Origin: Opisthocomus hoazin | Taxonomy: Eukaryota; Chordata; Aves; Opisthocomiformes; Opisthocomidae | Assembly (NCBI RefSeq): GCF_030867145.1 | Contig: NC_134431.1 | Location: forward strand, 10,121,089-10,185,088 | Direction of reading: 5' to 3' | Length of the DNA stretch: 64,000 nt | Part shown: positions 2,641 through 55,885 of the stretch, piece by piece | Position numbering within the stretch: the stretch's first letter is position 1 | How the letters are laid out: every line of letters starts with the position of its first letter | The notes under the pieces: model-generated | Told to the model about the DNA's origin: nothing | The model's input: the letters and a program-made list of their open reading frames with translations, nothing else | Databases searched by the model: none | Position numbers and translations under genes: made by a program

Positions 2641-2645
2641 TGCAA

Positions 2646-11157: not shown

Positions 11158-11167
11158 GCCGCCATGG
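11158..11167 (+). promoter_or_regulatory. Kozak context at the SBSPON-like start codon
   Basis: GCCGCCATGG is a full-length vertebrate initiation consensus. It supports the ATG at 11164 over the overlapping out-of-frame ATG at 11172, and the reading frame from here leads straight into a hydrophobic signal peptide. Confidence 0.85.
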
Positions 11168-11392
11168 CGCGGTGCCCCGGCGGGGCGGCCCTGCTGGCGC
11201 TGCTGCTGCTGCCGGCACTGCCCCGCCGCGCCGCCGCCGGCTGTGCCTCCCGCCGGCTGTGCTGCCCGGGCCGCGACCCGGCCTGCCTCAGCGCCGGCCG
11301 GCGGCCCGACGGCTCCCACGGGCCCTGCTACTGCGACCAGGCGTGCGCCCGCACGCTCGACTGCTGCCACGACTACGCCCGGGCCTGCCCAG
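11164..11392 (+). CDS. SBSPON-like exon 1: signal peptide and somatomedin B domain
   Basis: Encodes residues 1-76 and the first base of codon 77. A Leu-rich signal peptide (ALLALLLLPAL) ends near AAAG at 23-26. The somatomedin B domain has ten cysteines at 27, 33, 34, 41, 55, 57, 61, 67, 68 and 75, including the hallmark CYCDQAC and DCCHDY words. The donor is CCCAG|GTGAGT at 11393. Confidence 0.95.
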
Positions 11393-14300
11393 GTGAGTGG
11401 CCGGCGGGGCCGCCGCCGCTCCCGGGTCCGGCTGTCCCCGCTGCCTCCCGCGCTGGCCGGCACCTGCGCGCCCTCGGGGCGCCGGCTGCACCGGAGGGCG
11501 CCGCCGGGCTCTGCCTCGCTGCTGGGAAGAGCGGGAGGGGGCGGGCGGGATGCGGGGGCCGGCGGAGGGATGCTGCGATTCTGCGGGGTGCCGGGGCCCC
11601 CCTGGAGCAGGCAGCTGGCGGGGCGCCTCGGGGAGCTGCGCGTCTGCCCAGGACGGGAGTGGGAAGCGGGACGTTTCCCGGCTGCCTCGGGATCCCCCGA
11701 TCCTTTTCCGTCGCGGGGATTGAACCGTGGCTGCGGTCAGAGCTGCTGCTGCCGTTAGTCCGAGCTTCCCCGCGCGGGGCCTTGGAGCGAGAGCCCCGCC
11801 CGCGGTGCCCGTGCAGAGGGGTGCGGGGGGCTCAGCCCCGCTCCCTCCAGGGCAGGCGGGAATCAAGGAAAAAAGTTATTTTAGTGAGCGGTGCAATCCC
11901 ATCTTCCCTGCCGATGAGCGGCATCCTCAGGGAGCCCTGCCCGCTCGCATAGTGCCTTTTTTTTTAAAAAACCTGCATAGCTGTGCCGTAGCAGCGTTTT
12001 GCCCTAGGCAGGTGGGTGGACATTCCCGGGATTTAATTGCCTTTTCGCTGTCAGGAGAGAGCTGGAGAAGGGGTGGGACACGAGCTCGCTCCGAGCTGTG
12101 TCTGTGAACGGGCCGGGCCGCGGGCCTGCAGGGCAGCTCCAGAGCGCAGCGCCCGGCCGCCGGCATGGCAGTGCTGCCCGGGGGATCCCCGGGCACGGCA
12201 CCCCGGGTCTGCGGGGGGGGGTGTGTGCGCCTTGGCCGCGCTGCTGCTGGGGCCGTGGGGGAGGGGTGCGCTGGGTGGTCGCGGCTGCCCGGGTGCCCTC
12301 GGCGTGTGAGGGCTGCCGGGCGCTCCCCCGACCCCTGCCGCGCTCGCGGTCCCGGGGCGGGACAGGCAGGAGCCCCTCGCGTCGCCTCTTCGCGTTCCAG
12401 AGGAGCAGCAACAACGCGGCGTTCGCAGCCCCCCGCTGCGCGTCCGGGGAGGGACCCCGCCGCGGGGCCGGTGCCCCGGCTGCGGGCCTCGCGCTCCGCC
12501 GGCCGCGCCATCCCGTGGCCTGCCGGGGGAACGGCAGCGGGCGGCTGGGCGTGTGCGGGGGGAGATGCTGCTGCTGCGGTGTTTCTCCCGAGTCGTTTGC
12601 GCTGGATGTGAGCGACCCAGTCCTGCTTTGGCTTGCATTGCCTTTGCAGCCTGGTCTTTTTCCGGTGTTTTGCTTTCTCCCACCACTAAAGAGCTTCTTT
12701 ATCAAACTGACTTGTAAAGCAAAATATTAAGGCAAAGGCATTAATATCTGACGCTAAACAGAACTGAAAAGAGCAGATGAGTCCAGATAAATGAGATGCG
12801 CAAAAAGATTACAGTGTTGGGTAACCTGCAATCCAAGGCACAGGGGTTTTTTTGGTGCACTGCTGCATATTTGTCTCAATTACTGGAATGATTGATTGAA
12901 TTCCTAATCTTTGATTTAGAAAGCTGTTTGTGGTGCCTTTAGACAAAGAAGAAAAGCAATAGCATTTGAAAGATCTTACTAAAGTTTCTGAAGACAGGGG
13001 CAGTTTCAAATGAGGTTCATGCAGTAATTAGGGGTTATCTGTGTTCCATGGGATAATAAATTCAGGTGTTGAGTTCGAGCTGCTTGGAAAGGCAGGGATT
13101 CACCACAGTGTTTAGCAGCTTATGTCCCAATGAAAAGCTCAGGCTTTTGGGTGCCTTTGCAAATCAGAGTGCAAATGTCTGTTACTGTGAGGTGCTGAGC
13201 GTAGGGGCTCTTAATGGATTTGAAGGGCCTCATCCGCATCTTTAAATTTAGTGGTAGATTAGTAGTGGAAGTGAATTCAGGGCTGAGGAATTCCTTGTGT
13301 CAGAGCTTAGAGTCATGGGACAAATTTTTCCATACTCGTGTAGTTTACCTCTTGAGTACTTGCAGGGACTTTGGTGGAAGCTAGCTTGCAAGTGCAGCCC
13401 TTCTCTTAGTGCACATGAGGTGGTGGGTGCTGGTCTTCATCTGGTTGCTCTGTGTGTGAGGCACCCAGTGGCTGGACCAGCAAGGTACGAAACCTGGTAA
13501 GACACCTATTCACTGGTGCAGCTGAAGACTGATGCCCTTAGAAGTGCTGGCATGGTGTGTCATCATGCGCTGGCCCAGCTCAGTCACAAGATACAGAAAT
13601 GCAAGGAGAGGGACTGTAGCCAACTGAGAATACGTGGGGGGGGGGGGGTGCAGAGGAGACTCTGGGCTGACCTGCAAGTGTTTTTCTCCAAATATACTGT
13701 TCTTGATGCTGGGGTTGTGTTGGCTAAGTACAGCTGATCAAGTATATCATGGGCTATTGTTCCAGGTTGCCTTTGAGGGAGACCAGCAGGTGAATGCTCT
13801 TACTCTCTTGAGAGATTCCTGTGTTTTTCCTGATGGTTCCCTCCAAAGATTTGATCCTATGAAACTCAGCTATGGGCATGCTCATGGGGAAGAGGTCACA
13901 AAAGGGAATACATGGCACAGGGAATGGTACTAGTGTGTTTCCGACTGAATGGATTGGGTGTTGAATGCTAAAGGAAGACATTTCTTCAGCCGCTTTGAGC
14001 CTAAGACTTAGGAGCTTAACATGGTGGATACTGTGTGAAAGCAAGCAGGGATGCTCAATGATGTGGAGATTTTTGAAGCATTACTTAGTGCAGGTTCCCT
14101 AAATTTAAAGTCATGAGTCACATCCCCAAAAATATTTTGGGATTGGTTCCAACACATACAAAGTGGAAGCCATTGCATTGTATTTTGCTTCTTGAACTCA
14201 ACTCCAGCCTGCCGTGCAACGATCCAAACTCCATGTCCGGTCATCGTTTGCCATGTGACATCTGACAAGAGAAGTCAGTAATGTTTTAGGCCTCATCTAG

Positions 14301-17300
14301 ATGAAGGGTCTACAACACCTTCTCTTTTCTCCTGCTCTTTATCCTCCTCTTCTCTTACCGCTCAGTTTGACCCTGTCTAATTTTGAAACCTTTCTCAGTT
14401 CCTCTGGCGCAGGTCCCAGTTTGCAGGGAAGGCTTGCAGCAGTGTAGCTAGGGGGAGGTGGCTGGCCCCATGCAGACTATCCTAGATGGCTGGAGCTTCT
14501 GGCCAGGTAATTCTCTGGGAGCAGAGCTACTGGGAACTGCCCAGCACAACCGTGGGACAGGTGTGAAATGAGGGTTGTACTGAGCTGTGTCGAGAGTGTC
14601 TTTTCTGAGAAGGCATGTAACTGCCATCATTTCTATAACTTTCCGCATCCTATTTGTTACTCTTCTGCCAGTTATCCCCTGTGTGGTATCTGAGTGGAGT
14701 GTCTGGAGTGGCTGCGCAGAGCCTTGCAAGACAACATATCGTGTTCGGAGGCGGCACGTCATCCAGGAGCCCCGGAACGGAGGGGAGGCATGCCCTCCTC
14801 TGGAGGAGAGGGCCGGCTGTGTGGAGTACTGGACTCAGCAAGGAACAGAGTGCAACCAGTCCCTGAGTAAGTCCACTGAAAATGTAAGTGTCTGGGTAAT
14901 CGGGGGGAGGACGCTTGCTTGGGTCAGTAGATCTTTCTTTATTGTATTTGAAAAGAGTTGTTTTCAGACACCAGCACATTTGCTCTGGGCCTGCCTGGTG
15001 GAATTGAGAACTGAGCTCTGCACACAGGGGCTTAGAGATATCGTTCCTGGGACAGTGTTTGGAATTAGTGCCTGCCGTTTGCTGTGATCTGCTGTGTTTT
15101 GAAAGTGAGATATTACAGCCCTGTTGCAATCTCACTTATACAAGTGTAAATCTCTGGCAATTTTGATAGAGTTGGTAGATTTATGCCTGTTTAAAACTTC
15201 TGTAAGTGGGTGTTGAGCACTTTTTTTTTCTTTTTTTTATATATGTATTTTTTAAAATTTTATTAGTCATCTGTAAAAAGTCATGAAGGAGCAATACCCA
15301 TCAAAGGCAAGGTATGACTTCTCTGTACCGGAGCAGAGTGCAAGCAGAGACCTCCAACAAATCTCTAGAGAAAAAGCCTGATTTCAGTTTGTTCAAAACA
15401 ACTTTTTGTGACGCACCTTTACTGATTTTTAGAAGAACTGCTTGTCATTTTTTGCTGATATTTTGGGGTCAAAATCTGTCCAGTCTGGATGTTGGCTACA
15501 ACTGACTCCTTCAAACCTGTTGAGAGTTGGTATTAAGTGAATGTCGCCTCCTCCCTCTGTCTTTTGGGTGTGCCTGATAAGTAGGCATACTCTGCTCAGG
15601 CAAAAATCTGGCAAAGATGCAGATTTTCTTTTCAGTGAAATGGTTGGTGGTCACGGATAATATGAAAATACAATGTTAGAAATGTTTTTGCTCCTTCTGA
15701 AGATAAAACTGCATGACTTTAAAGGCCCATCTTTGCTGTTTTGCAGATGTGAACAGCCTTAGTGCAGTATTGCCACTTACGTTATGTACTCTTTCTCTTT
15801 GATATACACAGTCCCAGCGTTAATAACAACAGGAGGGTTTGGAAAAGCAAGGAAAAAAAGAGCTGCAGCTGATGGCAGTGAAAGAGCAGGGTAAGTTGGA
15901 GGCTCAGCACAGGGGCTCAGTCATACTCCACCTTGAGTGTCTCTCTGGTTGCAGTTTTGGGCCCAGCTTTTTGCTAATCAGAATTGGCGTTTCCCAGCAG
16001 AAGGGCGGCTCTTCACTGGAGCAGGGTGCTGCTCTCCCCTCAGCGACAGCAGTATCTGCAGCACTGCTGAAGGTTGTGGGTCTGCTTTGGTATAAGGCCA
16101 GTATAAGATTGAAATTCAGCTCTTTGTTCATGGCAGCGCTGCTGTTTAAGGCTGTGTGATCAAAAAGCTGAAGACTATTCACTTTAGCTCTCCGCAATAT
16201 GGAATCTGGTGCAGTTTCCACTTTTTTACATAAATGGGGTAAATTCTCAGGGAGCAGAATATGCTGTCTTGTTGCATAGGAAGCACATCTCTCTGCCAAT
16301 TCAGCCCCCTTTGGCTGTAACACTGCCTGTTTTCCACTGCAGCACTGTTGCACAGCACAGGTACAGGCAGGGTTGTGCAGAAAGCTCTGTTGCGTTTTAC
16401 CTTCTGAGACACAGCCATCTCTGTGTGTGATGCCCTGCCTCCAGGCTGGTGCCTCAAACACAGGGGAGCTGGCATCAGGCTTCCCAGTCCTCATCTTTCC
16501 CAGTTGGGGTCATTGCTAGCAGCGACACAGTGCTGATGGGAAAGGTTATCTTCCACCCTGTAACCACTCGTAACACAGCTTTGCAAGCTAATTATTCTGT
16601 AGAGGATCTTACTGCAGTCCCTGGCGGTTTGCCTGTTGCTTGTTGAGAGCTGCCATTCCTGTAAATGCTGTGTGGAGTTTTCCAGAGCTGCTCTTGCAGC
16701 ATGAAGCCGCCATGCACTTGTTGATTTATTTCCCCACATGCTGTTGTGCATATAAGTGTTTCCATAGTGCGTGGGTGCATCCCTCCCTTGGACTTCTCGT
16801 TAGTTGAGCCGTCTCCCTGGAAAATTAAAAAATGTGAGCACAGTTCTATTGCGCACGTATTTATGCTTGCTGTCTTTCCCTCAGATAAGACAAGGAAGCA
16901 AACTGCTCACATGGTTCAGTGTGTTACTTGAAGGTGTTTGGAAATCCCCATGATGACTGATACAGAACCAGTCTAGACTAGAACCCAATTCTCTGCTGTG
17001 TTTATAGATGATCATGAAACTTCCTTGGTTTTCCCCTCCAAACAAGGCCAGTTCTTTTGGGCTTTCCTCTCAGGTTTGATTAAAATCAGAAACACAGAAA
17101 AGTCTGAACAGGGCAGAAGTGCTGTGTCAGTCTGGTAGTCATCCCACTGAGATGTGACAACCTCATTCTGTCTCTTAAGAGGGAGATATCATCACAAGGA
17201 AAACCTTTACAGACTGAATGTTAGCTCCTGTTGCAAGTTGCTTTACAAAACCCCTTCTAAGTAACTGACAGTAGGTGATGGAGAAAGCGTGGTTCAGCAA

Positions 17301-20300
17301 ATGGATATCAGACTTGGAATCAGAAGACCTGTCCGTTGGGTTTTTTGGCTTTAGTCAAATGCTTGACCAATCTGTGTCTCTATTTGTAAAACAGGTGCCA
17401 GTAATACCTGATATTTTTTGATACGTCAGTTGAAAACACCAGCAGAGTAGTTTTATTCCCCATTTAACCTTGTCAAAATATAGGTACACCACATGTTCTA
17501 GTTTTTATGACCTTGGGGGGTGTGTGTGTTTGTGTATCTGTTTTTTGTTTTTCTTAGTTATTTATGGTCACCTAGTTTAGTCTGACTTTTCCAGACCTGT
17601 GAAGGGCTCTAATCTGGTTATTGAGCTAACCTACTTGGTTATTTTGGTTGCAGGTACTGTGTTGAATTCCAACTTGTGGCCATCACGCCAGACTGCTCGC
17701 ACAGCCACCACTCGTACACTCACTGGATGCAGTACCTCAGGGAGGGCCACACCGTCTGTGTGGAGTGTCAGCACCCGGCTTTGGACTCCAGAAGTCTGCA
17801 TTGTTACGGGGATGGCAGTGGAAGCAAAAAGTAAGAGTTTTAGCTTTTGGTTTTGTGTTGAACTTTTCATTCTTCTCCCTTGATCTGCTTGTCCCAGTTT
17901 CATTATGCGCTGCACACAGCTCTCTGGAGCACTCTATGTATATTAACTGGTATTTGTTGCACACCATGAGTTTCTTGCAGAGGTGGAATGACCTAGTGAC
18001 AGAGCCAGGACTGAAGTGTGGGAGTACATGCACTTAGTCTGCTAAATGTCACTGACTTTTAAGTGGCACAGTTGCAGAGCTTTTTTGTTTTAAAGACACT
18101 TCAGCCATACTTCTAAGGTTAACAGTCCTGTCGATTGTCAGATAAAACCAAATCTGTTTCTGATTTTTAAGCGCTGGGGATTTTATTTCTACAAGTGACC
18201 GTTATGAGTATTTCTGGTGAGTGGCAGCTGGCCTGGGGCCTTGGGTTATGTGCTGGCACCTGAGGTTACTGTTAAATCTTTGCACTTTCAGCATCCTTTC
18301 CCTGGAAAGCTGAAGAAGCTTTGGAGTGATTGATGGGGATGACCCAGGTTACACAAATTGAGTAAACTTCAGCAAAGATGAAGGGAATGGCTTGAAGCTG
18401 TGAAACACGTCTGTGGCAGAGCCAGCAACAGCGAAGTGCTGGTTCCCAAGCCTCTGCTGTGGTCACTGGAGGCACAGCTTCTGCACTGCTTTTATCCTGG
18501 TACTCTTAACCCCATTACTAGTTTATTAAAGGCCCTGGTTAGCAGCCCTGCTGGAGAGAATCATTGCCCATCAGTGCTGGGCAGGGGTATTTTTAAAACT
18601 TACATAAATGTTGAAATAAGCACGTTCATTTGAATTAGAAACTCTAAACGAGGATTGCCAGACCTCAAGCACACAATGTATTGCAGTACCAAGACTGCCA
18701 ATAATGGCTTTTTTGGCAGAGTTTTTCACAGACTTTTAGTAAGAGGAAGTCACGTTAGAGTCTTTTCCTTCCCTGCCTCAGCATGTTATGTACAAAGGTT
18801 CCAAAGGCTTTTAGATAAAGAAAAAAAAAATCTTAGCTGGTGTGGCCAGGAGTAGCTTTTACCTGCATTCAACTTGTAAATGATTATAAAAGCTTACAAT
18901 AATGTTATTTTACTAAAACCCTGGAGCCAGACAGGAACATCAGATTAAACAAAATAAAAAATAGATTCAGGAATTCATTTCCTCGTTGGGCAAAAAGAGG
19001 GGGGCGTTTTAGTTCACCTGTTTGGTGAACAGCACTGTATGTGGAATGGAAGCACAACTAAATGGGACCACGTCCTTGAGGAATGATGATCTGATCATCA
19101 GATGTTGGCAGGCTGAGGGCTGGAAAGGGGAAGCGGTGGTGGAGTTGGGGTGAATGGTGACTGGTTCACTGAAGTCAGGACTCAGTCCACATCTCAGCAG
19201 CTGGTTGCAATCTATCCCAATTGAGCAGAGCCTAGAAGTTGTTCACAGAGTCTTGCTGGAGATGAACTGGTGGGTCCATGTTATTACAGGCATGTGAGAG
19301 CCAGCAGGGAAGCCAGCTTTTATCACGGTGAGCTTTTACCCCTCCAGCATTACTGCCTATAATGTCAAATGAAGTAATGTCTGTGGCATTTTCTAGGTGG
19401 GTATGAGCTCTCTATGAGTGTGCCAAGCTGAGATACTATGTGTGTTCATGTGGGTTCATTACCAGGGCAGTAACATAGGCTTGGAAGACAGGCAGGGCTG
19501 TCCTGGGTGGGCCTGGTCAGTGGACAAAGCTCTTATCTGCAAAAAGCAATGGAGAAGCACTTGAAGCCTCCTTGAACCAGCAGTGCTGGGCAGCTTTGTC
19601 AGAGGTGAATGCATGAGTGGCAGGTTGAACATAAATGATGTCTCTGGTCTGCAGCTTCCTCATCCTCTGTGTGTGTGTGAAGCCTCCCTTACATTTCCTG
19701 TGGATCTTTTGGATAACTCCCATGTATCCCCTAAATAGGTAACCTCCAGGGAATGCTCCGGTGTTCTTGATCTATTGATCTTACAGTGGTGGGTCAAGAA
19801 GATTGTTGTCCAGGGCTGGGTATCTTGCTTGATTTTCTTGATATCAGTATCTGAGGTGCACGTATTTACTGTAAATACTCTTTATATGAATGGAGCTATC
19901 CCTTAATTTGTTTCCAGAAATAATATACTTTTTTTACCAGGTTGCATGGAGGAAAAAACTGACCTCTGTGATCTCTGAGAAGAAATTGGATTGAGGGAAA
20001 TGTCTGTGAAAAGGCTTCTGCCTTCTGTTAGAGTAAGCGGCCATATCTGAGTGTGCAGTCTTGTAAGAGACCAGTGCTCTGAGGGGGTTGCATGGTGAGC
20101 TGCTCAGGCTGGGACTTGCTGGCCAGATCGGAGAGCATAAATGTAGTGCTTGTAAAGAAAGGTGAAAGAAGATGGGGAAAACAACTGCTGCCCTGAGAAA
20201 GAGGATGGTGGGAGGCCGAAGCTGCTGCCAGAGCCTAGAATGCAGCGTGTGTTGAGTTTGCCTAGATCTGCTCACGAGTCTCTGGCTGTATGCTCAGTTC

Positions 20301-22637
20301 ACCCTCATTTTGAATTTTAGCCAGTGTAACTCTGCCAGGAGATGTGGACGGTTTGTGGTAGCCTGAGAGCGGTGGTTGTGCTGGCTGACCTGTGCCATCG
20401 CGCGCTGTTCTGGGTCCCTGGGGCTGCTGGCTGAGACTGTGCAGGGAAGCAAGCACAGCTGCTGCTGTCCCACCCACGCCGTGCCTGCGCTTTGCTTCTC
20501 GCCCTGTCAGTTCAGCAGCTTGTGCCAGCCTTTAGTTCCCTGAGATATTGTTCCAAGAGTGACTCTCAGGAAGGAAAACATCTGACAGAGTTTAAAATAA
20601 ACTCAGCAGTGCTGGTATATTTTGATGAGTATTTCCTAATTATCTTCTTGTGTCTGAGTGGAGTCTGGCTTATAAATGCTTCAAGTTAAAGGGAGATGCT
20701 TGTTATCTGTGCCTTCCACCTGTCTCCCACTCTGTAGAAGATGTTAGTTCATTTTAGCCCGTTATGCAAGCTCAGGAGGTTTCCCAAAGTCCCTGATTTA
20801 TGGCCCGATCTGTGGCCATCATGTGAGGATCGCTAGGATAATCTAGCTTGCATTGGCTGCTCTCTTCTAAAAGGTTATGAAAAAAATAAGGCAGAGCGTT
20901 GATTTCCTGCAAGCCAGGAAACTGATTTGTTAATTTTGTATTGTCTTCTGAAAGATCTACAAGTAAAGCACAAACTTGACATCTGTGAAATTGTTACTCA
21001 GCCTGTGTCTAGGAGGATCAACTGCTCTTCATCATCTGGAGCTAGATGTGGTGGCTGTAGTGCATAAATGTCCAGAATGCAGCGGTTTATGCCCATGCTT
21101 ATGGGGCGGAGGTAGAGAGAGGACGGATGGACTTGATTTGTAGCAAAGTCAGTATTTGACTTCTTGCCAGCAAGATGAGAGTAAGCAAGTTTAGCTGATG
21201 TGTTTTAGAAGTAAAACCTTTTAAAGTTAAAGCTGCAGCCCAGAGTTTTGAAGGGTATGGGACTGCTCTGTGTGCAGCCTGCTTTATCTGGAAGCTTAAT
21301 CCTCCCTGTGCAGATTCTGGCATTTTGAAATGACCCCAAGCCAAGAGAAAAATACAGAGAGCATTTTCCAACCATGTGTGATGCATAAAACCCTGCTCTG
21401 GAGTATGACATCTCATTAAACCAAGGGCAGGGTTATCTTTGTGGAGCTGGAGCAGTAATTCCAGTTTCCACAGAACTATAAAACAAGCAGAAGTTAGGGG
21501 TCTGTTGGGCTATTCTGTGGGCAGCTGTCTGCAGAGGGCAAGAGTTGATCCAATTGTTGTATTTGTGTTCCTCCAAAGGTCAGGGCTGGGACGCACTGAT
21601 GTAAGGAATTCCCTTAAACCACTAAATCTGGGAATGGACACAGTGCGATAGCAAAATTTTGGTTTCTGTGGTCGTTAGGCCAGCATTGCTTGTGCAGCCA
21701 CTGGTTGTGAAAAATGGCCTGTGGATCTGCTTGGTTTTTTTCAGTAGGGTATCTCTCTGTTCAGTTCTGGTCAATGTATTGATGGACTGCCCGGGAGAAA
21801 AGGGGTTGGTTGGTTGGTTGTTTTTTTTTGTCCTCTCCTTCAGAGGCGTGTGAGTAATCTTATTCCAGCACTTATGGGTCTGGTACCTCCAGCCAGCTGC
21901 TGTCCAGAAGCTGTGTTAATGTGTAGCTCTTAGCAAGGCGGAAAAGCTTTGGAGAGTGTTCCACTAATGTGGTTATCCAGAGATGCTCATGTTCCTGCAC
22001 CTGCTCATGCAGACGTGTGCTGTGTACTGCGTGCATCTCGATGGCTGGGGGTGGCAACAGAGCTCTGCCTGCTGAGAGGGAGCATGGTGTTATAAAGAAA
22101 AATGGAGAAGGAGGTGTTTTGCCCAGTTTGCAGCCTGTCAAGTGTTTCAGTACAGGAGTCATGGGGATGTTGGTGTGCTTTGTGAGTTGTTGCATGCAAT
22201 GCTGGGCACCTCAAGGGAATGTTTCTGTGAATCCTTTTGGTCTTAACATCTACCTTATGTGCTGCTCTGCGTTCTTCCAGTCCAGTGTTGCTGACTGACT
22301 GTGGATTTACTTCACACTATTATAATCCTACGGGGTTCACAGTGGTTGCTGCTTCTTTACAGTGGTAGAAAGGCAGAATTGGGTGCATGGAGTGAAAATC
22401 GATGTTAGCAAACTCAGTGGGATTTACTGGGCGATGTAAGCCCTCGTTGTACAAGTGACTGTCCTGCAGCAGCAGAGGTGCAGCATGTTAACTTTCTGCC
22501 TCTTATGATTGTGTTTCAGGAATCAGCTGTTGCACTGGCAGGCAGTAGGGAACCCTCGATGCAAGGGAACCTGGAAGAGAATTCAGCAGCTGGACACTTG
22601 CTCCTGTCCTTCTGTTCACAGCTTCTTGTTCATCTAA
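11164..22637 (+). CDS. SBSPON-like secreted protein (somatomedin B + thrombospondin type 1), five exons
   Basis: Joined exons 11164-11392, 14672-14866, 15812-15890, 17654-17830 and 22520-22637 give 798 nt, 265 aa plus TAA. Human SBSPON, as I recall it, has 264. Layout: signal peptide about 1-25; somatomedin B domain 27-75; thrombospondin type 1 repeat about 79-137 with WSVWSGC at 85-91; a basic linker 153-158; a cysteine-rich C-terminal domain 170-265 ending CSCPSVHSFLFI. All junctions are GT-AG and keep frame (phases 1, 1, 2, 2). The start has a full GCCGCCATGG context. Family members are secreted and matrix-associated; the molecular role is poorly known. Downstream, KCNB1 converges on it. 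Mammalian SBSPON neighbours KCNB2, so this is probably a paralogue; I therefore leave the symbol empty. It could instead be SBSPON itself relocated. Confidence 0.93.
11393..14671 (+). other. Intron 1 of the SBSPON-like gene
   Basis: A 3.3 kb intron, GC-rich in its first 1.2 kb and AT-leaning afterwards. It has a 13-base G run at 13636-13648. The acceptor is TCTTCTGCCAG at 14661-14671. No other coding segment is evident. Confidence 0.9.
13636..13648. repeat. G13 homopolymer in intron 1
   Basis: An uninterrupted run of 13 G on the plus strand, flanked by unique sequence. Confidence 0.9.
14672..14866 (+). CDS. SBSPON-like exon 2: thrombospondin type 1 repeat
   Basis: 195 nt, residues 77-141. 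Contains the W85xxW88 pair (a potential C-mannosylation pattern), the CxxxC pair C91/C95, a basic TYRVRRRHV strand, GGEACPPLEERAGC and a closing cysteine at 137. An N-glycosylation sequon NQS lies at 138-140. The donor is CCCTGA|GTAAGT at 14867. The match to the remembered SBSPON repeat is strong (PPLEERAGC shared). Confidence 0.96.
   Translation, partial: LSPVWYLSGVSGVAAQSLARQHIVFGGGTSSRSPGTEGRHALLWRRGPAVWSTGLSKEQSATSP
14867..15811 (+). other. Intron 2 of the SBSPON-like gene
   Basis: 945 bases, with a T-rich and A-rich stretch near 15220-15270. The acceptor is GATATACACAG ending at 15811. Nothing else is seen in it. Confidence 0.88.
15812..15890 (+). CDS. SBSPON-like exon 3: short basic linker
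   Basis: 79 nt, residues 142-167 plus two bases of codon 168. It reads IPALITTGGFGKARKKRAAA and continues to GSERA, aligning with the human SBSPON linker VPAFITTSAFNKER. It carries RKKR at 155-158 (15850-15861), a furin-type site. The donor is GCAGG|GTAAGT at 15891. The ends are fixed by frame with exons 2 and 4. Confidence 0.92.
15891..17653 (+). other. Intron 3 of the SBSPON-like gene
   Basis: 1.76 kb. It holds a MIR-like fragment at 17283-17415 and ends with the acceptor TTTTGGTTGCAG at 17653. No other coding sequence is recognised; the minus-strand stop-free stretch 15904-16494 has no family features. Confidence 0.88.
17283..17415 (+). repeat. MIR-like SINE fragment in intron 3
   Basis: Follows the MIR 5' half on the plus strand: GACTTGGAATCAGAAGACCT near 17311, a TTTAGTCAAATGCTTGACCA block, TCTGTGTCTCTATTTGTAAA and finally CAGTAATACCTG. 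The order matches the remembered MIR consensus (GGAATCAGAAGACCTGGGTT, TCATCTGTAAAATGGG, AATAATACCT). Confidence 0.65.
17654..17830 (+). CDS. SBSPON-like exon 4: cysteine-rich domain, first part
   Basis: 177 nt, residues from codon 168 to most of 227. The frame gives YCVEFQ, a Ser/His-rich stretch SHSHHSYTHWMQYLREG, and TVCVECQ. Human SBSPON has the corresponding YCMEFK, RWMQYLREGYTVCVDCQ. The donor is AAAAA|GTAAGA at 17831. Confidence 0.96.
17831..22519 (+). other. Intron 4 of the SBSPON-like gene
   Basis: 4.7 kb, the longest intron. A possible MIR 3' fragment lies near 17975-18045. It contains a GGTT repeat with a T run near 21806-21830. The acceptor is GATTGTGTTTCAG at 22519. I see no further exon: the reading frame of exon 4 joins exon 5 perfectly. 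Confidence 0.88.
22520..22637 (+). CDS. SBSPON-like exon 5: end of cysteine-rich domain and stop
   Basis: 118 nt, 38 residues and TAA at 22635-22637. It encodes NQLLHWQAVGNPRCKGTWK and ends CSCPSVHSFLFI, nearly the same as the remembered human SBSPON C-terminus (HWQAIGNPRCQGTWK, CSCPAVHSFIFI). Confidence 0.96.
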
Positions 22638-29800: not shown

Positions 29801-29971
29801 TACTTGGAGAACACAGAAGCAGATCAGTTTTGTGTCCTATAAAGCAATGTTCATGCCTGCTTTGTTACTCCAGTGTCATTGTTTTCATAATCCAAAAGAT
29901 CTTTACCTGTTCTTAGCTTTTGAAGGTATCAATTTTAACGTGTAAGGCCTTGAACCTAACAGAAATTTCTA

Positions 29972-45262: not shown

Positions 45263-45272
45263 TTTATTTATT
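45263..45272 (-). terminator. KCNB1: Overlapping pair of AATAAA signals, candidate distal KCNB1 poly(A) site
   Basis: TTTATTTATT on the plus strand reads AATAAATAAA on the KCNB1 strand. It is the last strong signal before the sequence loses its 3'-UTR-like character. Cleavage would be near 45240-45250. Confidence 0.4.
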
Positions 45273-48200
45273 TCTGTAGTCTGTAGTAGGGGACCATTGC
45301 TTTAAAATCCTTAGACATTTGGACATATTTTACAAGACAGTACAGTTTCTGAATGTCACACATTGATCACAGTTTCATACTACTACATGCATATAAAGAC
45401 ACTGATTTTTTTTTTTTTTAATAATTTGTTTACGGAAACAACTGGAGAGGTCAATAAACTTCAACAAAGAATGACTAAATCAAAGTTACAAAAAAATTTA
45501 AGACTCTAAGTACACTAGTATATGGCTAATGTTACTGTAATCACCCAAAAATGCCAGGGTATTGAAACATTGCTTAAATGGGGAGAAAACACCTGCTGAT
45601 GCATTGCCCCTTGGGTTGATCCAATATAACCCAACGAAGAGACTGTGCAAGATGTGCAGGATCTGCTGGGCAGAGGCAGGAAGCACTGCCCTTCATTACA
45701 GACGTGCTGGACTGGATTCCCTGTTTCTTTCCCCATTGCGCGGGTTGAAAAAGAACTGAAGTGCAAGGCAATGGAGAAACCTGTCATATGTTCTGCCCTT
45801 TCTCAAGCTGGATCACAGCTGGTTTCAATTTCCAGATGTAAAAGCAATTTGATACACATGTACTAGCAGAGCCACAGGAAACCTACATTTTTCCAGTTTT
45901 TATTTGTTGTTAAATATCACAGTTTTCTTTTAAAGGGAACTCCACCGCTTTCTTATCCTTCAATGGCTCTGGATGCTCACTGCTGCCCTTTGGAGGTTTC
46001 ACTGGGAAGCCCTGGCTGCAGGCTCATGGGCCACTGTGCAGGTCCAGCAGCTGCCCTGTGCTTTTGGAGAAGGAAGCCCTGAGGCTGTTTGCCGGCGCTG
46101 TGAAACGCTGAGCAGCTGCAATGTGCAGCACAGTGACAGACCGCCCGGGCGTCCTTCCATGGGCATGGAGTCGTTGTTAAACAGCACTTGCAACAGTGCC
46201 TCATTAAGTGTGTTCTCCCCATTCAGGAACTGCTTCACTGGCTTGATTAGAAAGCAGCATTCTGCTGCAGTAACTTGGGGTATATGTTTTTAATGCTAAT
46301 CTAGTTGGAAAGTGAGTTTGGTTGGTAGCTGTGGCTGGCCTTGCTGATTGCAGTATCATGGCTTCAAAGTTCAAAGTAATGGAGACGCTGCTCCTTCCCC
46401 CCTCCCCCCAGCACACCATTGGGGAATGTTTCAATGCAAAAGAAATTTTCTGCATCCACCACCAAAAAGCCAGAAAGAATGGGGGAAAAAAATTGTTTTC
46501 CATCTTTGCCACAAGCCAACAAAACTGATATAAATAAGTAAATCCCAGTGGTCACGTGAGCCAACGTGTGGCAATGGTACTTAGGGGCAACAAAACAAAA
46601 GGAAGAAGAGGCATAACAGGCAGAGCTCCTAAATGAAGTACAGAGAGTAGAGAAGAACTAATGAATCCTAAAATGGTCTTAAATGTAGAATACCAATAGA
46701 ACCAGAGGTTGTTACACAGTCAAAGGTAACCAGTGGCCCATCTGCCGGTAGTGTCCTCCTAGCAGCAGTACGTCCCTGGACCGAGGGCTGAAAGTATTGA
46801 ATCGTGTGGCTGAGCTTGTGGTCCTGCTGTAGGGACAGTCATCTGTGAGTTTGGGATGCTGCTTGCAGCATCAAGCCCACGAAGAGTGAGCTGACACAGA
46901 GGGATGTTCAGTCAAGATAGGGATGATGTGATTATCATCCTCTTGCCTGAAGGATTCCCTCCTTTCCCAGGCTTTCGCTGACCTGGCTCTGCTTCCCACT
47001 CCTTCACTCCACTGGTTTCCTTGTAGGTGCTGTGGACAGAAACATCCTTCCCTGAAGTCATACAGAGCTTTTAATTTTCCATTATTTTTTAGAGACATGG
47101 GTCCTAATTCTTCTGTGGGCTAAATGGGGCACAGCTCCATTGACCTCAATGGGCTTTTACTTCAAGCAGCAAAGAATTTGCATGTCATGCAAATTTGGCT
47201 CCCTGGCTTCCACAAGGCTCGAGTTTGGGTGGGTCTTTGTACTGATCCCAGCCTGATTATTATTTCTTGAAGGTATTGACACTACAGTCTTGAAAAGACC
47301 CCTTTAAAAATGTCAAAGGTTAAGCCTTGTTCCGTCCTACAGAATATCAACAATATTATTTCTAGTTAAAAAGAAAAATGAAGCATTCTCTTCTAAGCCT
47401 CTAGACTGAAAACTTCTTGTGCGATGAAGCCAGAATCAAGAAACGCAAAATTCTGAGCAGTATTTACAGATATGAACATTTGTGGCACCCTACCATTGGT
47501 GTCAAAGGACACTTATTTGTGGCTTAGGTAACACCAGCAACAAAGGAGATACGCACCCTTAATGCAGGCTTCCAGTTTTCCTAAGGTTTCCTTTGTCTGG
47601 CCAAGACAAAGTTTCGGTTGCAAGAGCCTAAATCTGATCAGCATGGAGTGTGAAACACATGCTGGGAAATGAACGTCTCTTCTTTGAAGGGCTGGTTGGT
47701 ATCTGGGTCGTTTCTGTCGCGGTGTGGGAGGGCTACCTGCAAGGGTAAATTGAAGCCTGGTCTAACTAGAATCTTTCTATGGTTTAGTTGACTATGCACA
47801 AACTTACTGATATGGAAGATGCCTTTTGAAAGGATTTATGTGGTCACTGATGCTAGATATGGTGGGCTATTGCACTAATGGCTTTCAAAAGAAGAAAAAT
47901 CCCACCCAGTTTTAACATGCTCATGTGTAAATGGATCTTGCTGACACATGATCACATGCAAAACAGTGTCTGCTGTTTTTTCAGTTCATTTAGGTGGTAT
48001 TTGGACTTTCTGAAACACGTGTTTTCCCAAAGTAATTCTGTTTCAGGTTTGCTGGTTAGTGTGGTTGGCCTGTAAGAAAATCACATAAGCAGACAAAAGG
48101 AAATGGGACCAAAACTCCATCTTTGGAAAAAAATATGGTCACTGACCAGACTGCTGGGTGGATTCAACAGGGAATGTTCGCACAGAGCTACAGGGCTGAT

Positions 48201-49078
48201 CTGAAGCTCTTTGTCGTGCTAAACTTCAACAGGCCATGAGATAGCTTCAGGATGCACATTTATCTCATGGAATTTTTAGTCAATTTATGTGATGGTACAG
48301 CTATAAAGGAGTAAGAAAGATCATTGAGTAAGCACGTGCATAGACGGACTTCACCATAACCAGATCCAAATCCAGTCGCTTTCTGTACGTGTACATTCAG
48401 GTTTTTTTATTCCCTCATAATTTTTTTCTCATTTCCTGATTTTGTCTGGGACTGAAAGTAGAAATTCCAAAACCCAGTGGGAAGGGAAAGTCTTGACCCT
48501 TCTCTTTCAACCCAGAAAAAACTTCCCCAAAGGTGGGAGCTTTGCCTGAGCATTGTCAGGTCACTGCCTTAAAATAAGAGCCTGAATTTTGACGCTTATC
48601 CCAACTCCATCCTAATTATTAAGACAGTCAGGTTCAAATCGTGTCTCTTCTTTATACTCTCAGCTTAATCAGTGTAAATCTGGAAAGACTCCACTGCAGT
48701 TCAGGCTATGGCTAACGTCGAAGCCAGTGGCATTCGCTGGCATTTACATTGCCGTATCCAAGGGCAGAGTCCGGCCTGTTTCTGTGTTTCGTGGAAGGAA
48801 CATCTTTGTCTCCATAGCCAGTCCCTGGTTATTTTTCAGTACCACAAACAGGAAAAATATGAAAACATGACAACATCAGACAAACTCAGTGACCTTTCGC
48901 AGACGCACTTGCGGGAGGGATGTTGCAGGTGTTTTTCTTAGAACAAAAGAAAATAATGACAACAAAAATGTTAGGGGATCAACTATGTAAATGAACACCG
49001 AGAAAGCATCTAATATATTATTCTGTAATACAAAAAGAATTCTGACTCGATTGCCCTATTATAAATTTGCTAAAAATA

Positions 49079-49125
49079 CAGATATATATTTATATTTTTA
49101 TATATATATAACTTTTTTTTTTTAA
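49079..49125. repeat. AT-rich low-complexity tract
   Basis: TA dinucleotide runs interrupted by T runs, followed by a T11-type run near 49114-49123. It lies within the probable KCNB1 3' UTR, where the transcript would carry A- and UA-rich sequence. Confidence 0.75.
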
Positions 49126-50154
49126 ATCTGAACAGAAAAATAGACTACTCTGGAATGCATGAAAGTCACATGACTTTTCCATACATCAGATACTTATAAA
49201 GCCAACACAATGGCAAACAGAAGGTACAGAGGTAACTAGAACATCTGTACTTTATTCAAGAGCTATTTAAAGCCATATTCTCCCCAGGTGGGTGATCCTA
49301 AAGCAACCTAAGAAGGTAACACTTGTTCAGTCTGATTACCGTAAGCAGAAGTGACTGACCAAACACGAAGAAGTCGGAGCTGATTTGGAGTCACTGGGGA
49401 AGCCCACCTCCCCATCTCGCTCCCGACTGAGCTGCACAGGAGGGCATCGGTGCCACACGGTCTCCATCACTCGGCTACTTTATTCAGTGATTCTTCTGTT
49501 CGCTTTAAAATGAGGTGTTAAAAACAATGGGAGATCATGGTATGTGGAGCTTACCGACAGAGAGAGAACTTGGCTTTAGAAACCTTGTCTTTGCGATGAG
49601 TTTTAAATACCCTTCGTATTTACTATAAACTGTACCAGTCATAATTCTGTCAAGACATAAATATACAATAGGTACAAATATTAACAATACATTACAATTT
49701 TACAGAAGAGAATACTGTTTTCCTTAGAAATGTGTATCGTATTAGCTGCAAGGGAAGAAAAGGCTACAGTTTATCACAGCCATAGTTGCCAAAGAAACCG
49801 ACCGCCTCGGATGCGTTTCTGTGGGACTTGCACAGACAGATATTCCCCGGCACGTGACACACGGTATGTTCAGGAAGAGAATGTGCGTTCCACGGGTTTT
49901 CTTTTCCTCTTTTTTTTTTTATTTTTTTTTATTTCCTTCTTCTACCTTTATTAACTCTCAAAGCTTTCAGAAATATGTGGATTTCACAGGAGACTCTCTT
50001 GTTTTGTTTTGTTTTCCATAAGTGTGCTTAGGTGAAGTTTCTAAGAAAAGGCACTGAGAAATCTACTGCAATATGACTGCTTTTTTCTTCTGTTCAAGGC
50101 TAAAACTTGAAGGATCTTTGCCTCCTGGTTAAGAAAACTGCACCCATTCCTTCC

Positions 50155-50195
50155 ACATATATATATATTCTCTATATATATATTTATATATAAGT
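50155..50195. repeat. TA dinucleotide microsatellite (interrupted)
   Basis: Three blocks of TATATA separated by TTCTC and TTTA. It is partly self-complementary and lies in the probable KCNB1 3' UTR. Confidence 0.8.
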
Positions 50196-50583
50196 ATTAA
50201 AAATGATATTGATGACGTAAGATACAAGCAAGCACAGACATCACACAGACATAGTCCTTTCAGATAGGATGTCTTCTGCAGCAGCAGGTGAAACTGTCAG
50301 CTTGCTTGATACAGGATGCACAGTAAATTCGCAGACCTGAATGCCAAATACCAATGATTAAACTGTACGCTTTAGCTTGATGCAAGAGATATTGCATATT
50401 TTCCCCGACTCCTATGAGCTTTGGGAAACATGTTTCAAACAAACTATAAAATGAAATTGTCTTTCTAGTGTCGATAGGATTTGGTGAGCCTTATGTTTTC
50501 AAAGCACTGCCTTTCCTTTTGTAATGAGTACAGATTTAGTCTACCATAGCTTTATGTTAGAGTAGATTTCCCAGTGCTTACAT

Positions 50584-50620
50584 TATATATGTGTGTATTT
50601 TGCACACACACACATATATA
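50584..50620 (-). other. Perfect 13-bp inverted repeat (hairpin) in probable KCNB1 3' UTR
   Basis: The arm TATATATGTGTGT (50584-50596) is exactly complementary to ACACACATATATA (50608-50620) across an 11-base spacer. Either strand's RNA could form a stem-loop. It arose from adjoining TA/TG and CA/TA simple repeats. Confidence 0.85.
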
Positions 50621-53482
50621 GATACATACTTCGTATTCAGACTTTATTTTATTAAAATAAATTAAACATAATTCCTTTTTAACTGGGCACAAAATGAGAG
50701 CTACATCTTCATACACAAATAAGAAATGCTCTTCAAGCATATTATATGCTTAATTTGAAATTATTTGCTTTCTATAAGAAATCTATAGGACTTTGGCTAT
50801 TCAGACTTAAAAGGTAGATTTTTAATAATACTTTTGAATGTGGCTTTCAAAAGTGACTCAATAAAATGCTACTTTAAAGGTAGGACTAAATAGATGATAG
50901 AAGGTGTGTGTTGTAAGTGATCACACAAGGCAGACAGAGGGCCTTTGGTTACAAGGAGAGTTGCACCAGTTGATTATCAGTTAAAAAATGATAGAATTGT
51001 TGATCTATACATTTTTGTCAGTGCCATCTATAAACCAAATACATCAATTTGGATGAGAGTGTGGTAAATACTACACTATATGGCTATATTTAAATACGCT
51101 CACTTTCGTGATATGTAAAATATGACTTTTTTTCCACATGAAAGCATCAGCTCTAAAAATATTTAACTTGGAAATCGCTATTACTTGCTTTATCAAAAAA
51201 TTTTCCCTGATTTTTCTCCTTTTTACATTTGTGCTGATGACAGACATGAATGATCACTGAAACACAGAGATTATGTTAAGACTGTTCTCTTTAAAATTTC
51301 TTGTTGCCACTCTACGGCCTCAGAAAGCCACAGAATAAATCAGTATTTAAAGCTTATCTGATGGAAAGTCACTTTACCTTTTTGTGACGACTCAATCTTA
51401 ACTAGTATCTCAGCAATACATCGGTTCCTCTAAGTACACTTGTATTTACTATGGCCGAATCCTAAAGTCCTTCACCAGGCAAAGAGCCCACTCAGAGGAG
51501 CGGTGGTTTTGGCTGAGTGGAGGCAGAGTAAAAGCTAATGAACCTCAGGAACTGGCCCTGCGTAAATACTCTGCAGAGTATCGTTTGCATGCACAGATGC
51601 CTTGAACTCATTTTGCGTACCTCCCGTGCCACTCTGCATGGCACGAGGGCTCTTTCGCTGCCGGTGGGCTAATTCGTGAGGTGGTGGCTCAGGTCTTACT
51701 CGCACCTTCCCCAGGGTCTTGCCTTGCTGGGACGCAAGGGCAACTTCTGAGCGGGTACCTCGGGCTGTGTCCCACCACCCGGGGATGGGGTCGGCTGAGC
51801 AGAGCAGAGTTAACTCCAACGCGTGTACAGTTTTGTGCCAAGGAGAGACCTAACAAAGCTATCACCGTAACCCATAATAGTTCCTAAAACATATATGTGC
51901 TTATTGCTTTTGTCCGTACATGCTGCATTCACTATTACGGATTACAGACAGAAGTACTGTACGGCTTGGACGGACAGACATTTACATTCAGGACTAACCA
52001 ACGGCGCTTTTTTTTACAATAGAAAGGAACAAAACGCAGCGGACTCGAGCAGCTTGGGGTCTTCCTCCCGCCTGTGCACCTCTGCTCCCGCATCCCGTGT
52101 CTCAACACGACCCCAGACCTGCTGCATGCAGATCGTTACACGCCCCGGCAGGTACTCAGAAATAGGTCAGGAAACACTCATTGACAGAGTTATTTACAAT
52201 TGAGTTTTACAGTAGAAACAGAGAACAACATAAAAGATTACCTTCACAGTTATCACAGGACAGGTTGTGACTTGCTACAGGCGTGTAACAAATCACGGTC
52301 ACGACAGGAGGCACAAATTAAAATAGTGCTTGGTTAAAGTGCTTGATTGTTACACTCTGCTATCCTACTCCAGCATCGCAACAACAACAAAAAGTCAACG
52401 TAAAGTGCTTTTCCCCCCCGAGATTAAAAACCAAAGACAAATTATTTCCTACACAATTTGACATAACTTTATTGAAACAATAATATTTTAAAAACCTAGG
52501 CTGGTGGCTGCTAGTTCTGTTTATTTAAAATGGTCAGATCTTTTTTTTCTTTTTTTTCTTGTTTCATTTAAAAATGACTAGATGTTATTAAAACATCAGG
52601 CCTGATTCTCCTGTCTCTTGCAGCTGCTTCGTAATGCAGCTTTGCAGGAGCCTCTCCCGCCCGACCTCCTCGCGAGAGAGAGCACAGCCAGGCCCGGGGC
52701 GGGTCGCTAACGAATCCCTCTTTTTGCATATTTATGTAACACTTGCATATCTTTCACTGCGCCTCTGCGGCGCAAAAAGCTTCAGACCGACCAGTTCCTC
52801 TCCTATGCCAAGGGCGAGACTTTGGCTGACGCCTCAAGTCGGCACGCGGGTGGGAAGGGGAGGCTGGGGAGCCGTCCCGGTGCCCCTGGCACGTGCCGCA
52901 GGGCCAGCGCAGGGTCAGCGCCGCGGCCACACTCGGCCGTCCCCATGGGGCAGGGCAGTGAGCATCTCCTTCCCGCAGAGGGGTAGGGCGAGAGCTGTGC
53001 TCTCCTTGCAGCCCTACGCTCCCCAGCACTGGGAAGGGGGTCTGGCTGCGATGCCTCTGGAGATTCCTGCTTCTGCATGGCTCCTTCACACCTTCCCAGC
53101 GTGGGCTGTGCGTCCACTGAGGGCCACGTGCTGGCCCCGGGGCAGGTATCGATTTTTAGCAGAGGGTAAGTGCAAGTTTCACTACGTTCCTAGGGGATGT
53201 TTGGAATTAGATACAAGTGGTGCAACTCACCCTGCTGATATTTCGAAAGAAAACGTCAGGTCCTACAGGATATTGTATTGTTAAACACCCAGAGAGCATT
53301 TTAATAATTGGTTTCTCTAGACCGTTACTTGTTTTAAATGGTTTTCACTTGGATTTTCCAATAATGCAAGTGTTCCCTGTTACCTCTAGACACAAAATCC
53401 ATCAGAGAAAGCTGTAGATGGGGAACAGCTGCCCTGAAGCAGTGAGCATTGTGGTTTTGATAGCTTTTACCAACCCCAGCAA

Positions 53483-53488
53483 TTTATT
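53483..53488 (-). terminator. KCNB1: Proximal KCNB1 poly(A) signal
   Basis: AATAAA on the minus strand about 375 bases past the stop codon. If used, it would yield a short-3'UTR isoform lacking the downstream AT-rich and hairpin elements. Confidence 0.35.
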
Positions 53489-53860
53489 CCAGAGTTCAAA
53501 TCTGGCTGCCTTGGCATCCTTTATGGAACTAATGCAAATCAGATGTTAGTATTTCCAAAAGGAGCTCTAGCGTTCAAGGGGAATGGATGGATATTTGGTC
53601 ACATTGGCTTCACTGGACAACATGAAAGGAGATCAATGTGTGATCATGATTTGCAATCCTTGTTTTTGACTGATGTGGGCAACGTCTTTAGAGTTGTTTC
53701 AGAGAAGGACATTTTCACAAACCCACACCGGACCTCCCCCAGACTTCTAGAAACAGGTGGCTTGTTTCAGCCAAGTTCATGCCATGCAGAAGCTCTTTTT
53801 TTTTGTGTTGACTGTAAAGACATTCCTTTAAACTTTCAGTAAGTTCTTTTGGAGCCCATC

Positions 53861-55885
53861 TCAGATACTTTGATCATGTGTGTTAGCATGTCCTCCGCTG
53901 CCTGGTAATACATGGACTTCTGGGGAAATGTGATTTTCTAGTCTGACAGTCTCCTGATTGCCCTGGGTTCTTCCAGTGATACCTTCCATAGAGTAAATGC
54001 AGTTTTGCCCTATCAGTTTAGGGGAGGTGGGTAAAGCAGCAGCTTCTAGATGGTTCTTCTCTGTTCTATAAACATTGTCCTTTTGCTTTAGATAGCCACT
54101 GTTTGTAACGTTGTACTTGGGACTCACATTTCCGGGTGGACTTGAATCATAAAGCAGCTGACCTTCATCATCAGTGTCAGCATCTATGTATTTGTGTATA
54201 CCAGCATCATGGAAGTTGAAAGCTATGGCTGTCTGTGTCTCTGGTGACTTTGGGGGTGTTCTCGCACTTGCAGTTGTGTAGATCGAGGTTTCTGGGCTCA
54301 TGAGAGATCTGTCAGAGAGTAAGGAAGTATCTGTGGCAGCAGCAGCAGCAGCTCCCCGGCTCTTGAGAGGATCTGGATATATTCTCAGTACATTTGATGC
54401 TGGTACTAATGTGCTGGTGTCCTCTTGCATGAAGTTGACTTTCAGAGATCTTAGTTTCAAAGGGTTACTGGCCTTTATGGAGCTTTTGGGACTTTCTATG
54501 AAAAAAGCAGAACGGTGGCTGCCTTCGGAGCCTGGGTTCATTTCCACAAACCTGGCACCGCTCCCCTCTGGCCTGCTCTGCTCCTGAATCACGTTAATGC
54601 CACCTTTGCAGGGAAGGGTAGCGAGGGGGCTGTGGGAAAATCTCCCAGAGTCAGGGAACTCTGCCGCACAACTTATGAAGCTGTCGATGCTGGACATGCT
54701 CCTCATGTCAATGATCCCATCAGTGCGAGTCGTCAGCAAGGGCACCATAGGGCCAGGAAGGGTTTCCATTTCTAGCTCTTCCTTTTGCTTTGCAGGTTGA
54801 CTCGACTCTTTAGTATTAAGGTTTGGCTGGGACTGAGTCTTTGCCATTTTGTTATACATGTCCTCTAGCTGTTGGACATTCAGGTGCTGGGGACTTGAAG
54901 ATGATCTGGCTTTTTCTGGAGATCCTTGTTCCTTAGTTTCAAAAGATTTGCTAGAGCTAGTTTCAGAAAGCGTTCTCTTGGTCCATTTCCATTTGCTGGG
55001 AGATAAATGATTGTCCTGAACTTTATCCTTTTTGGCTATGCTCTCTCCGTTCTTTTCAACAACAATGTCCATGAGTTCTATGCTACGGGCAAATGCATCC
55101 TTCATGTTCATGGAGACAATACTGCCATTCCTTTTTGCTCTTTCAAGAGCTTCCCTGCGCTTAATGGCTTTCTCTTGCCTCTTCTGCTCTTTGTAGAACT
55201 CAGAGAAGTTATTGACAATAATTGGGATGGGAAGAGCAATCACCAGCACTCCAGCAATGCAGCACAGTCCTCCTACTATTTTACCTAAAAGTGTTTTGGG
55301 GTAGATGTCTCCGTAGCCTACTGTTGTCATGGTGATTGTTGCCCACCAGAAAGAAGCTGGAATGCTCTTGAATTTTGTATCATCCTCATCCTTTTCTGCA
55401 AAAAACACTAAACTGGAAAAGATCATAATGCCCATGGCCAAAAACAAGATGAGTAATCCAAGCTCATTGTAACTCCTTCTCAGTGTAAACCCCAAGGACT
55501 GTAAACCCGTTGAGTGCCGGGCAAGCTTTAGAATCCGGAGTATCCTCATAATCCGAAATATCTGGACCACTCGTCGTACATTTTGGAACTGAAGTACACT
55601 TTTGTTGGATTCTGTGAGGAAGATAGTGACATAGTATGGTAAGATAGCTAGCAAATCAATAGCATTCAGTGGGCCTTTGAAAAACTTCCATTTCTTAGGC
55701 GAGGATAGGAACCGCAAGAGGTATTCCATTGTAAACCATGCAATGCACACCGCTTCCACGTGGGCAAGTTGGGGATTATCCGTGGTCTGGCCAAATTCAT
55801 CCACGCCTTGTAGTTCAGGAAGTGTGTTAAGGGACAAGGCAATTGTAGATAGTACAATAAACATGATGGAAATGATTGCCAAAAT
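53861..55885 (-). CDS. KCNB1: KCNB1 (Kv2.1 voltage-gated K+ channel), last coding exon: S1 to C-terminus
   Basis: 674 codons plus TGA at 53861-53863. The exon starts in phase 0 at [13 protein letters not shown] after the acceptor CTTTCCTTTCCAG; upstream exon 1 (N-terminus and T1 domain) is outside. Exon-relative residues: S1 1-20, S2 40-60, S3 73-91, S4 104-123 with [20 protein letters not shown] gating charges, S5 142-164, pore with selectivity filter TVGYGD 188-193 (55307-55324), S6 205-228 with the PIP hinge at 219-221, then the cytoplasmic tail with the clustering (PRC) segment about 393-416. The end [17 protein letters not shown] and the [19 protein letters not shown] stretch identify Kv2.1, not Kv2.2 (KCNB2). 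Kv2.1 carries delayed-rectifier current in neurons and endocrine cells and organises ER-plasma membrane junctions. The frame is intact and functional-looking. One variant is seen in the FFAT-like core. Confidence 0.97.

What the first reader, a model, noticed from the sequence alone, without database searches (positions are those of the whole stretch)
11164..55885. An SBSPON-type gene sits tail to tail with KCNB1: probable second copy (ohnologue) missing from mammals
Seen: a complete five-exon SBSPON-architecture gene on the plus strand converges on the last exon of KCNB1 on the minus strand, with no coding exon between. Known: in mammals SBSPON lies tail to tail with KCNB2, with TERF1 between, and STAU2 is nearby; STAU1 lies near KCNB1. 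Inference: KCNB1-STAU1 and KCNB2-STAU2 are sister regions from whole-genome duplication, and an SBSPON paralogue was kept beside KCNB1 here but lost in the mammalian KCNB1 region, where I recall ZNFX1 next.
Basis: partly seen in the sequence, partly recalled or inferred. Interest (0 to 1): 0.75.

Follow-up and report, generated by a model that had tools for sequence, protein, structure and literature searches.

The report
Ancient second SBSPON gene beside KCNB1
This bird keeps two copies of a little-studied gene for a probably secreted protein, each tail to tail with one of two sister potassium-channel genes; the second copy is older than the split of sharks and bony fish, is still found in many mammals, and looks decayed in the monkey, ape and human records seen.

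Summary
Five exons (11164-22637, +) with GT-AG introns encode a 265-aa SBSPON-type protein that converges on the last exon of KCNB1 (-). In the same genome a second five-exon SBSPON gene (C3:38120760-38131542, +) lies tail to tail with the KCNB1 sister gene, taken as KCNB2 (C3:38179711-38181879, -). The proteins are 53.8% identical; intron phases agree. In an 80-row tree the window protein falls in a fully supported clade B, apart from SBSPON proper (A); each clade holds cartilaginous fish, ray-finned fish, coelacanth, salamander, reptiles, birds and mammals. The duplication thus predates living jawed vertebrates, and the paired KCNB neighbours point to genome duplication. One claim is wrong: the copy is not missing from mammals; marsupials and many placentals have it. 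The five named simian rows look decayed and no named rodent row was found. A furin-type motif (RKKR, 155-158) lies between TSR and C-terminal domain in 31 of 39 B rows against 18 of 41 A rows. Secretion and processing are inferred. Orthologues are annotated as 'SBSPON-like'; my paper searches found no account of an ohnologue.

The parts
11164..11392 (+). SBSPON-B exon 1: signal peptide (by eye) and somatomedin-B-like domain
   Evidence: open frame from ATG, donor gtgagt; tblastn hits
14672..14866 (+). SBSPON-B exon 2: thrombospondin type-1 repeat
   Evidence: Pfam TSP1_spondin 55.3 bits on residues 80-127; splice sites
15812..15890 (+). SBSPON-B exon 3: linker with furin-type motif RKKR (protein residues 155-158)
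17654..17830 (+). SBSPON-B exon 4: first part of SBSPON_C domain
   Evidence: Pfam SBSPON_C 52.9 bits on residues 165-258; splice sites
22520..22637 (+). SBSPON-B exon 5: end of SBSPON_C domain and stop TAA
53861..55885 (-).
   Evidence: open frame 53861-55912; PDB KCNB1 match from residue 9; Pfam Kv2channel and Ion_trans; own-genome sister at 80%
55208..55321 (-). Rfam K_chan_RES (RF00485) inside the KCNB1 exon
   Evidence: 78.2 bits, gathering 51

Best explanation
The gene is SBSPON-B, the ohnologue of SBSPON (SBSPON-A). Before the split of cartilaginous and bony fishes, most likely in the early vertebrate genome duplications, a block with an SBSPON gene tail to tail with a KCNB gene was doubled; the B copy stayed beside KCNB1, the A copy beside KCNB2, and this bird keeps both. 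Shown: both genes with open frames in one genome, the same neighbour and orientation, the same intron phases, a deep A/B split. Inferred: the product enters the secretory pathway, folds through its 24 conserved cysteines, and works as a small matrix protein (SMB, TSR, SBSPON_C); a furin-type protease may cut it after RKKR in the low-confidence, probably flexible linker, separating the SMB-TSR half from the C-terminal domain unless disulphides hold them together. In placentals the B copy evolves fast and often lacks the motif; in simians it appears to have decayed.
For: Gene model. Own-genome A copy with exons 217/195/91/177/118 nt against 229/195/79/177/118 for B, phases 1,1,2,2 in both, 53.8% identity. 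KCNB2 48 kb downstream and opposed on C3, KCNB1 31 kb downstream and opposed on C18; KCNB2 is 80% identical to KCNB1 over residues 5-434, the next match by score 49%. Tree of 80 rows: A/B split 100/100; 17 genera have a row in each clade; AU tests reject window with bird A (p 1.24e-37) and all birds as one clade (p 8.73e-42). A and B lie on different contigs here, C3 of 109 Mb and C18 of 20 Mb. STAU1 upstream, same strand as SBSPON-B. Linker motif: 31 of 39 B rows, 18 of 41 A rows, 0 of 7 mammalian A rows, 7 of 7 teleost B rows against 0 of 7 teleost A rows. Model of the stork orthologue P0001: residues 147-164 under pLDDT 50.
Against: No lamprey, hagfish or invertebrate sequence was placed, so the tree is rooted only by its species content, and a pre-2R segmental duplication is not excluded; the smaller 58-row tree had its midpoint root inside B. 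STAU2 was never located; the TRF family search for TERF1 hit only C12. KCNB2 is named by its 80% identity and place, not by comparison with a named KCNB2. KCNB1 linkage outside this genome was not tested. No expression or protein data. The furin motif is a pattern match; it is present in many A rows, in the own A copy too (RKRR), and absent in Callorhinchus B and in five of seven placental B rows. The model shows a low-confidence helix at 150-162, so 'flexible' is a guess.
Confidence: 0.87

Rival explanations
1. The window gene is the ordinary bird SBSPON that moved next to KCNB1, or a recent bird duplicate.
For: Same domain order and exon structure as SBSPON.
Against: The ordinary SBSPON is present beside KCNB2 in the same genome; AU tests reject grouping with bird SBSPON; clade B holds sharks and ray-finned fish.
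Confidence: 0.01
2. A and B come from an old segmental or tandem duplication of the SBSPON-KCNB block before the vertebrate genome duplications, with later sorting, rather than from a genome duplication.
For: No jawless-vertebrate or invertebrate outgroup was placed, so the age is only bounded from below.
Against: One copy per sister region with the same order and orientation, on different contigs, the pattern expected of ohnologues.
Confidence: 0.08
3. The protein acts inside the cell, like the reported ER-located human SBSPON that binds HSPA5, and is neither processed nor matrix-bound.
For: In bladder cancer cells human SBSPON was reported mainly in the ER and bound HSPA5 through the TSR (PMC12320502, sections 3 and 28 read).
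Against: That report concerns the A protein in tumour cell lines, where a secreted protein may be held back (inference); the conserved cysteines and basic linker of clade B fit secretion and processing.
Confidence: 0.2

Closest known systems
SBSPON (RPESP, C8orf84)
   Same: TSR and SBSPON_C domains, SMB-like cysteines, five coding exons (human five exons by PMC12320502, section 3), phases 1,1,2,2 in the own-genome copy, tail to tail with a KCNB gene
   Different: separate clade, 53.8% identity to the own-genome A copy, beside KCNB1 not KCNB2, basic linker motif kept in most non-placental rows, no sequon at the position of human Asn227
Gene si:dkey-7k24.5 (a zebrafish-style name, by recall)
   Same: rows carrying this name for Latimeria and Callorhinchus fall in clade B
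   Different: the name gives no hint of the A/B distinction
Vitronectin somatomedin B domain
F-spondin and complement TSR domains
   Same: TSR: Pfam TSP1_spondin, PDB 1vex E 0.00096
   Different: no other shared domain seen

Membership tests
SBSPON family | SBSPON_C domain (PF25031) over its cut-off | tested here: met
   52.9 bits, cut-off 27
SBSPON family | Spondin-type TSR | tested here: met
   PF19028 55.3 bits, cut-off 41
SBSPON family | Somatomedin B domain with eight cysteines | tested here: inconclusive
   Cysteines aligned and conserved, but PF01033 not reported for the window protein at E 0.01
SBSPON-A orthologue | Falls in the clade of SBSPON proper | tested here: not met
Ohnologue pair | Paralogues in paralogous regions of one genome | tested here: met
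   KCNB1 and its 80% sister beside B and A in opposed orientation
Ohnologue pair | Duplication dates to the vertebrate genome duplications | tested here: inconclusive
   older than living jawed vertebrates; no outgroup placed
Ohnologue pair | Further shared neighbours (STAU1/STAU2) | tested here: inconclusive
   STAU1 found beside B; the STAU2 search did not complete
KCNB1 | Kv2.1 sequence through to the C-terminus | tested here: met
   no named KCNB2 was available for comparison

The most novel reading that the evidence does not exclude
SBSPON-B is an overlooked ohnologue found in all main groups of jawed vertebrates sampled except frogs, caecilians and lungfish, and lost by decay in the human line. 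A and B divided the ancestral protein's processing: the furin-type linker was kept by B in fishes, reptiles and birds, and lost by A in mammals, teleosts and squamates, so that mammalian SBSPON, the form studied, is an uncut remnant of an originally two-part matrix protein. Fish studies of 'SBSPON' may then in part concern B, not the human orthologue.
Probability: 0.35. Interest if true: 0.45.

Novelty: new member of a known kind. Interest (0 to 1): 0.35.

Why it matters
It fills in a sister-region pair (KCNB1 with SBSPON-B, KCNB2 with SBSPON-A) and separates two genes that database names mostly do not distinguish, so that orthology transfers between fish, birds and humans can be corrected. 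It also offers a loss series (whole-looking proteins in several placental orders, fragments in simians) for a protein whose human sister has been linked to tumour suppression (PMC12320502, abstract and two sections).

Tried and rejected
Rejected: relocation or recent bird duplicate; 'missing from mammals'. Fold searches of the AlphaFold model of the stork orthologue P0001 (mean pLDDT 76.7) gave TSR and weak SMB matches; the C-terminal domain had low-Z rows only, which shows nothing either way; it was not folded alone. The SBSPON_C family search of the own genome found nothing, and nothing in its 14 controls: the domain is split over two exons. The TRF family search for TERF1 hit only C12, with 0 of 14 controls. 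A ZNFX1 gene was looked for by eye among ORFs of 170 aa or more left of the gene and not seen; this does not show absence. KCNB1 exon 1 was not found by motif within C18:10185089-10275088. Paper searches: SBSPON 126 papers, 40 listed; KCNB1+KCNB2+ohnolog 0; KCNB1+KCNB2+STAU1+STAU2 0; dkey-7k24.5 0; SBSPON+paralog 2, listing only; RPESP+spondin 4, listing only (one of them, PMC12320502, was opened separately); two of paralogon, STAU2, KCNB1: 2, listing only; somatomedin B and thrombospondin+genome duplication 0; SBSPON+chicken 14, 10 listed, passages of five seen.

Full report
What is there. The window is G000:C18:10121089-10185088 of a 1.48 Gb genome, on a 19,973,624-base contig. Five exons on the plus strand (11164-11392, 14672-14866, 15812-15890, 17654-17830, 22520-22637) join to a 265-aa frame with GT-AG introns in phases 1,1,2,2. 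The protein carries a spondin-type TSR and the SBSPON_C domain over their cut-offs and an SMB-like cysteine pattern; a signal peptide is seen by eye. The nearest protein row is a stork: 95% identity over 88% of the query by local alignment, 93% over 264 columns in the tree alignment.

The refutation tests. A search of the own genome with emu SBSPON (P0109) found 14 matches: five on C3 between 38120760 and 38131539 make up a gene, four on C18 are exons of the window gene (its short exon 3 was not matched), and the other five, on C13, C4, C9 (two) and C5, cover the TSR part only. Spliced, the C3 gene has exons of 217, 195, 91, 177 and 118 bases with the same phases, 265 aa and 53.8% identity to the window protein. 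A search with the KCNB1 exon gave 33 matches: KCNB1 itself at 100%, then C3:38180560-38181879 (-) at 80% with a C-terminal piece at 38179711-38180349 (34%), then other Kv-like matches at 35 to 54% over various lengths, the best-scoring at 49%. I take the C3 match as KCNB2 from identity and place; no named KCNB2 was compared. So SBSPON-A (+) faces KCNB2 (-) 48 kb away, as SBSPON-B (+) faces KCNB1 (-) 31 kb away.

The tree. Three protein searches (120 of 200, 113 of 113, and 120 of 262 hits listed) gave 263 proteins. I chose 79 of them for breadth and added the window protein. The tree splits at 100/100 into 39 B rows and 41 A rows. Both clades hold chimaera and sharks or rays, ray-finned fish, coelacanth, salamander, turtle, tuatara and squamates, birds, marsupials and placentals. 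Seventeen genera have a row in each clade; for Acipenser the two rows come from different species, and the Salvelinus name is cut short in one listing. An earlier 58-row tree had a 100/100 branch around A with sharks on both sides, but its midpoint root fell inside B. Holding the window protein with bird A rows costs 197 log-likelihood units (p-AU 1.24e-37), holding all birds together 187 units (8.73e-42). The other 184 proteins were assigned by best BLAST score only.

Where it is kept and lost. B rows include the marsupial Dromiciops (which also has A) and placentals from whales, carnivores, bats, manatee, elephant, sengi, tree shrew, galago, slow loris, mouse lemur, tarsier and colugo. Rows of about full length (261-281 aa) exist for whale, badger, two bats, manatee, lynx, elephant, two sengis, galago and tree shrew; those of tarsier, colugo and lion are partial predictions. 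Named simian rows are bonobo, capuchin, marmoset, tamarin and human (hCG2041260, partial); each is a fragment or runs into unrelated sequence. In bonobo and human the SMB part lacks two of its cysteines and no C-terminal domain follows. A sheep row also looks broken. These are predicted proteins; no genomic DNA of these species was read. No named rodent row fell in B among the 113 hits; many unnamed rows there have no species. No named frog, caecilian or lungfish row fell in B; one search listed 120 of 200 hits, but a frog A protein already appears in that list, so frog B proteins should have. Database absence is weak evidence of loss.

Position. Seventeen bird B clusters have a longest contig of 14 to 20.1 Mb (for example Gallus 14,265,659); against this stand Prinia at 37 Mb and Falco at 40 Mb, and a number on smaller contigs of up to 8.4 Mb. 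Five bird A clusters have contigs of 135 to 170 Mb; five others have smaller ones, 33 kb to 20.9 Mb. That the two groups are chicken chromosomes 20 and 2 is recalled. In the window's genome C18 has 20 Mb and C3 109 Mb. Left of the window, STAU1 lies on the plus strand with coding exons at about C18:10092255-10095200 (only PDB match 4dkk, Staufen homolog 1, 105.5 bits; Staufen_C; exon order by recalled motif words); STAU2 was not compared. From memory, human STAU2, SBSPON and KCNB2 on chromosome 8 have the same relative order and orientation as STAU1, SBSPON-B and KCNB1 here; I could not test STAU2.

How it may work. AlphaFold on the stork orthologue gives ordered SMB, TSR and C-terminal parts and pLDDT under 50 at 147-164, with a low-confidence helix there. 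In the window protein this stretch holds RKKR at 155-158. R-x-[KR]-R occurs in 31 of 39 B rows; the eight without it are five of seven placentals, Callorhinchus (QKKR) and two predicted proteins whose linker region does not align (Varanus, Nothoprocta). It occurs in 18 of 41 A rows, in 0 of 7 mammalian, 0 of 7 teleost and 0 of 3 squamate A rows, and in the own-genome A copy (RKRR). I read this as an ancestral processing site kept by B and lost in some A lineages. That the protein is secreted, cut by furin and matrix-bound is inference. One paper reports human SBSPON in the ER, bound to HSPA5 and probably N-glycosylated at Asn227 (PMC12320502, sections 3 and 28 read); the window protein lacks that sequon and has another at Asn138.

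Novelty. Database entries for the orthologues already read 'SBSPON-like' in words. The paper searches listed under Tried and rejected found no account of an ohnologue; the library lacks most subscription papers. I therefore file it as a new member of a known kind.

Noticed in passing
window 1572-2642 (-): A reverse transcriptase fragment (RVT_1, 72.2 bits), by eye a CR1-type LINE remnant of the bird kind.
   Followed up: partly
window 55208-55321 (-): Rfam potassium channel RNA editing signal (RF00485, 78.2 bits) lies in the KCNB1 exon, although by recall the edited channel is Kv1.1; conserved Kv sequence may explain the match.
   Followed up: no
chicken chr15, 8-9 Mb (papers only): Two chicken association studies list a gene SBSPONL near SUSD2 (PMC10976558, PMC7402339, passages seen): perhaps a third family member, not the KCNB1-side gene.
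   Followed up: no
G000:C18:10063000-10065100 and 10106500-10107800: Two stretches with long overlapping frames on both strands, by eye G+C-rich and likely CpG islands; the first may be the STAU1 promoter.
   Followed up: no
P0114, P0117, P0120, P0122, P0124, P0125, P0128 (placental B rows): Placental B proteins sit on a long branch (0.53) and five of seven lack the linker motif: relaxed or altered constraint, perhaps a prelude to the simian decay.
   Followed up: partly
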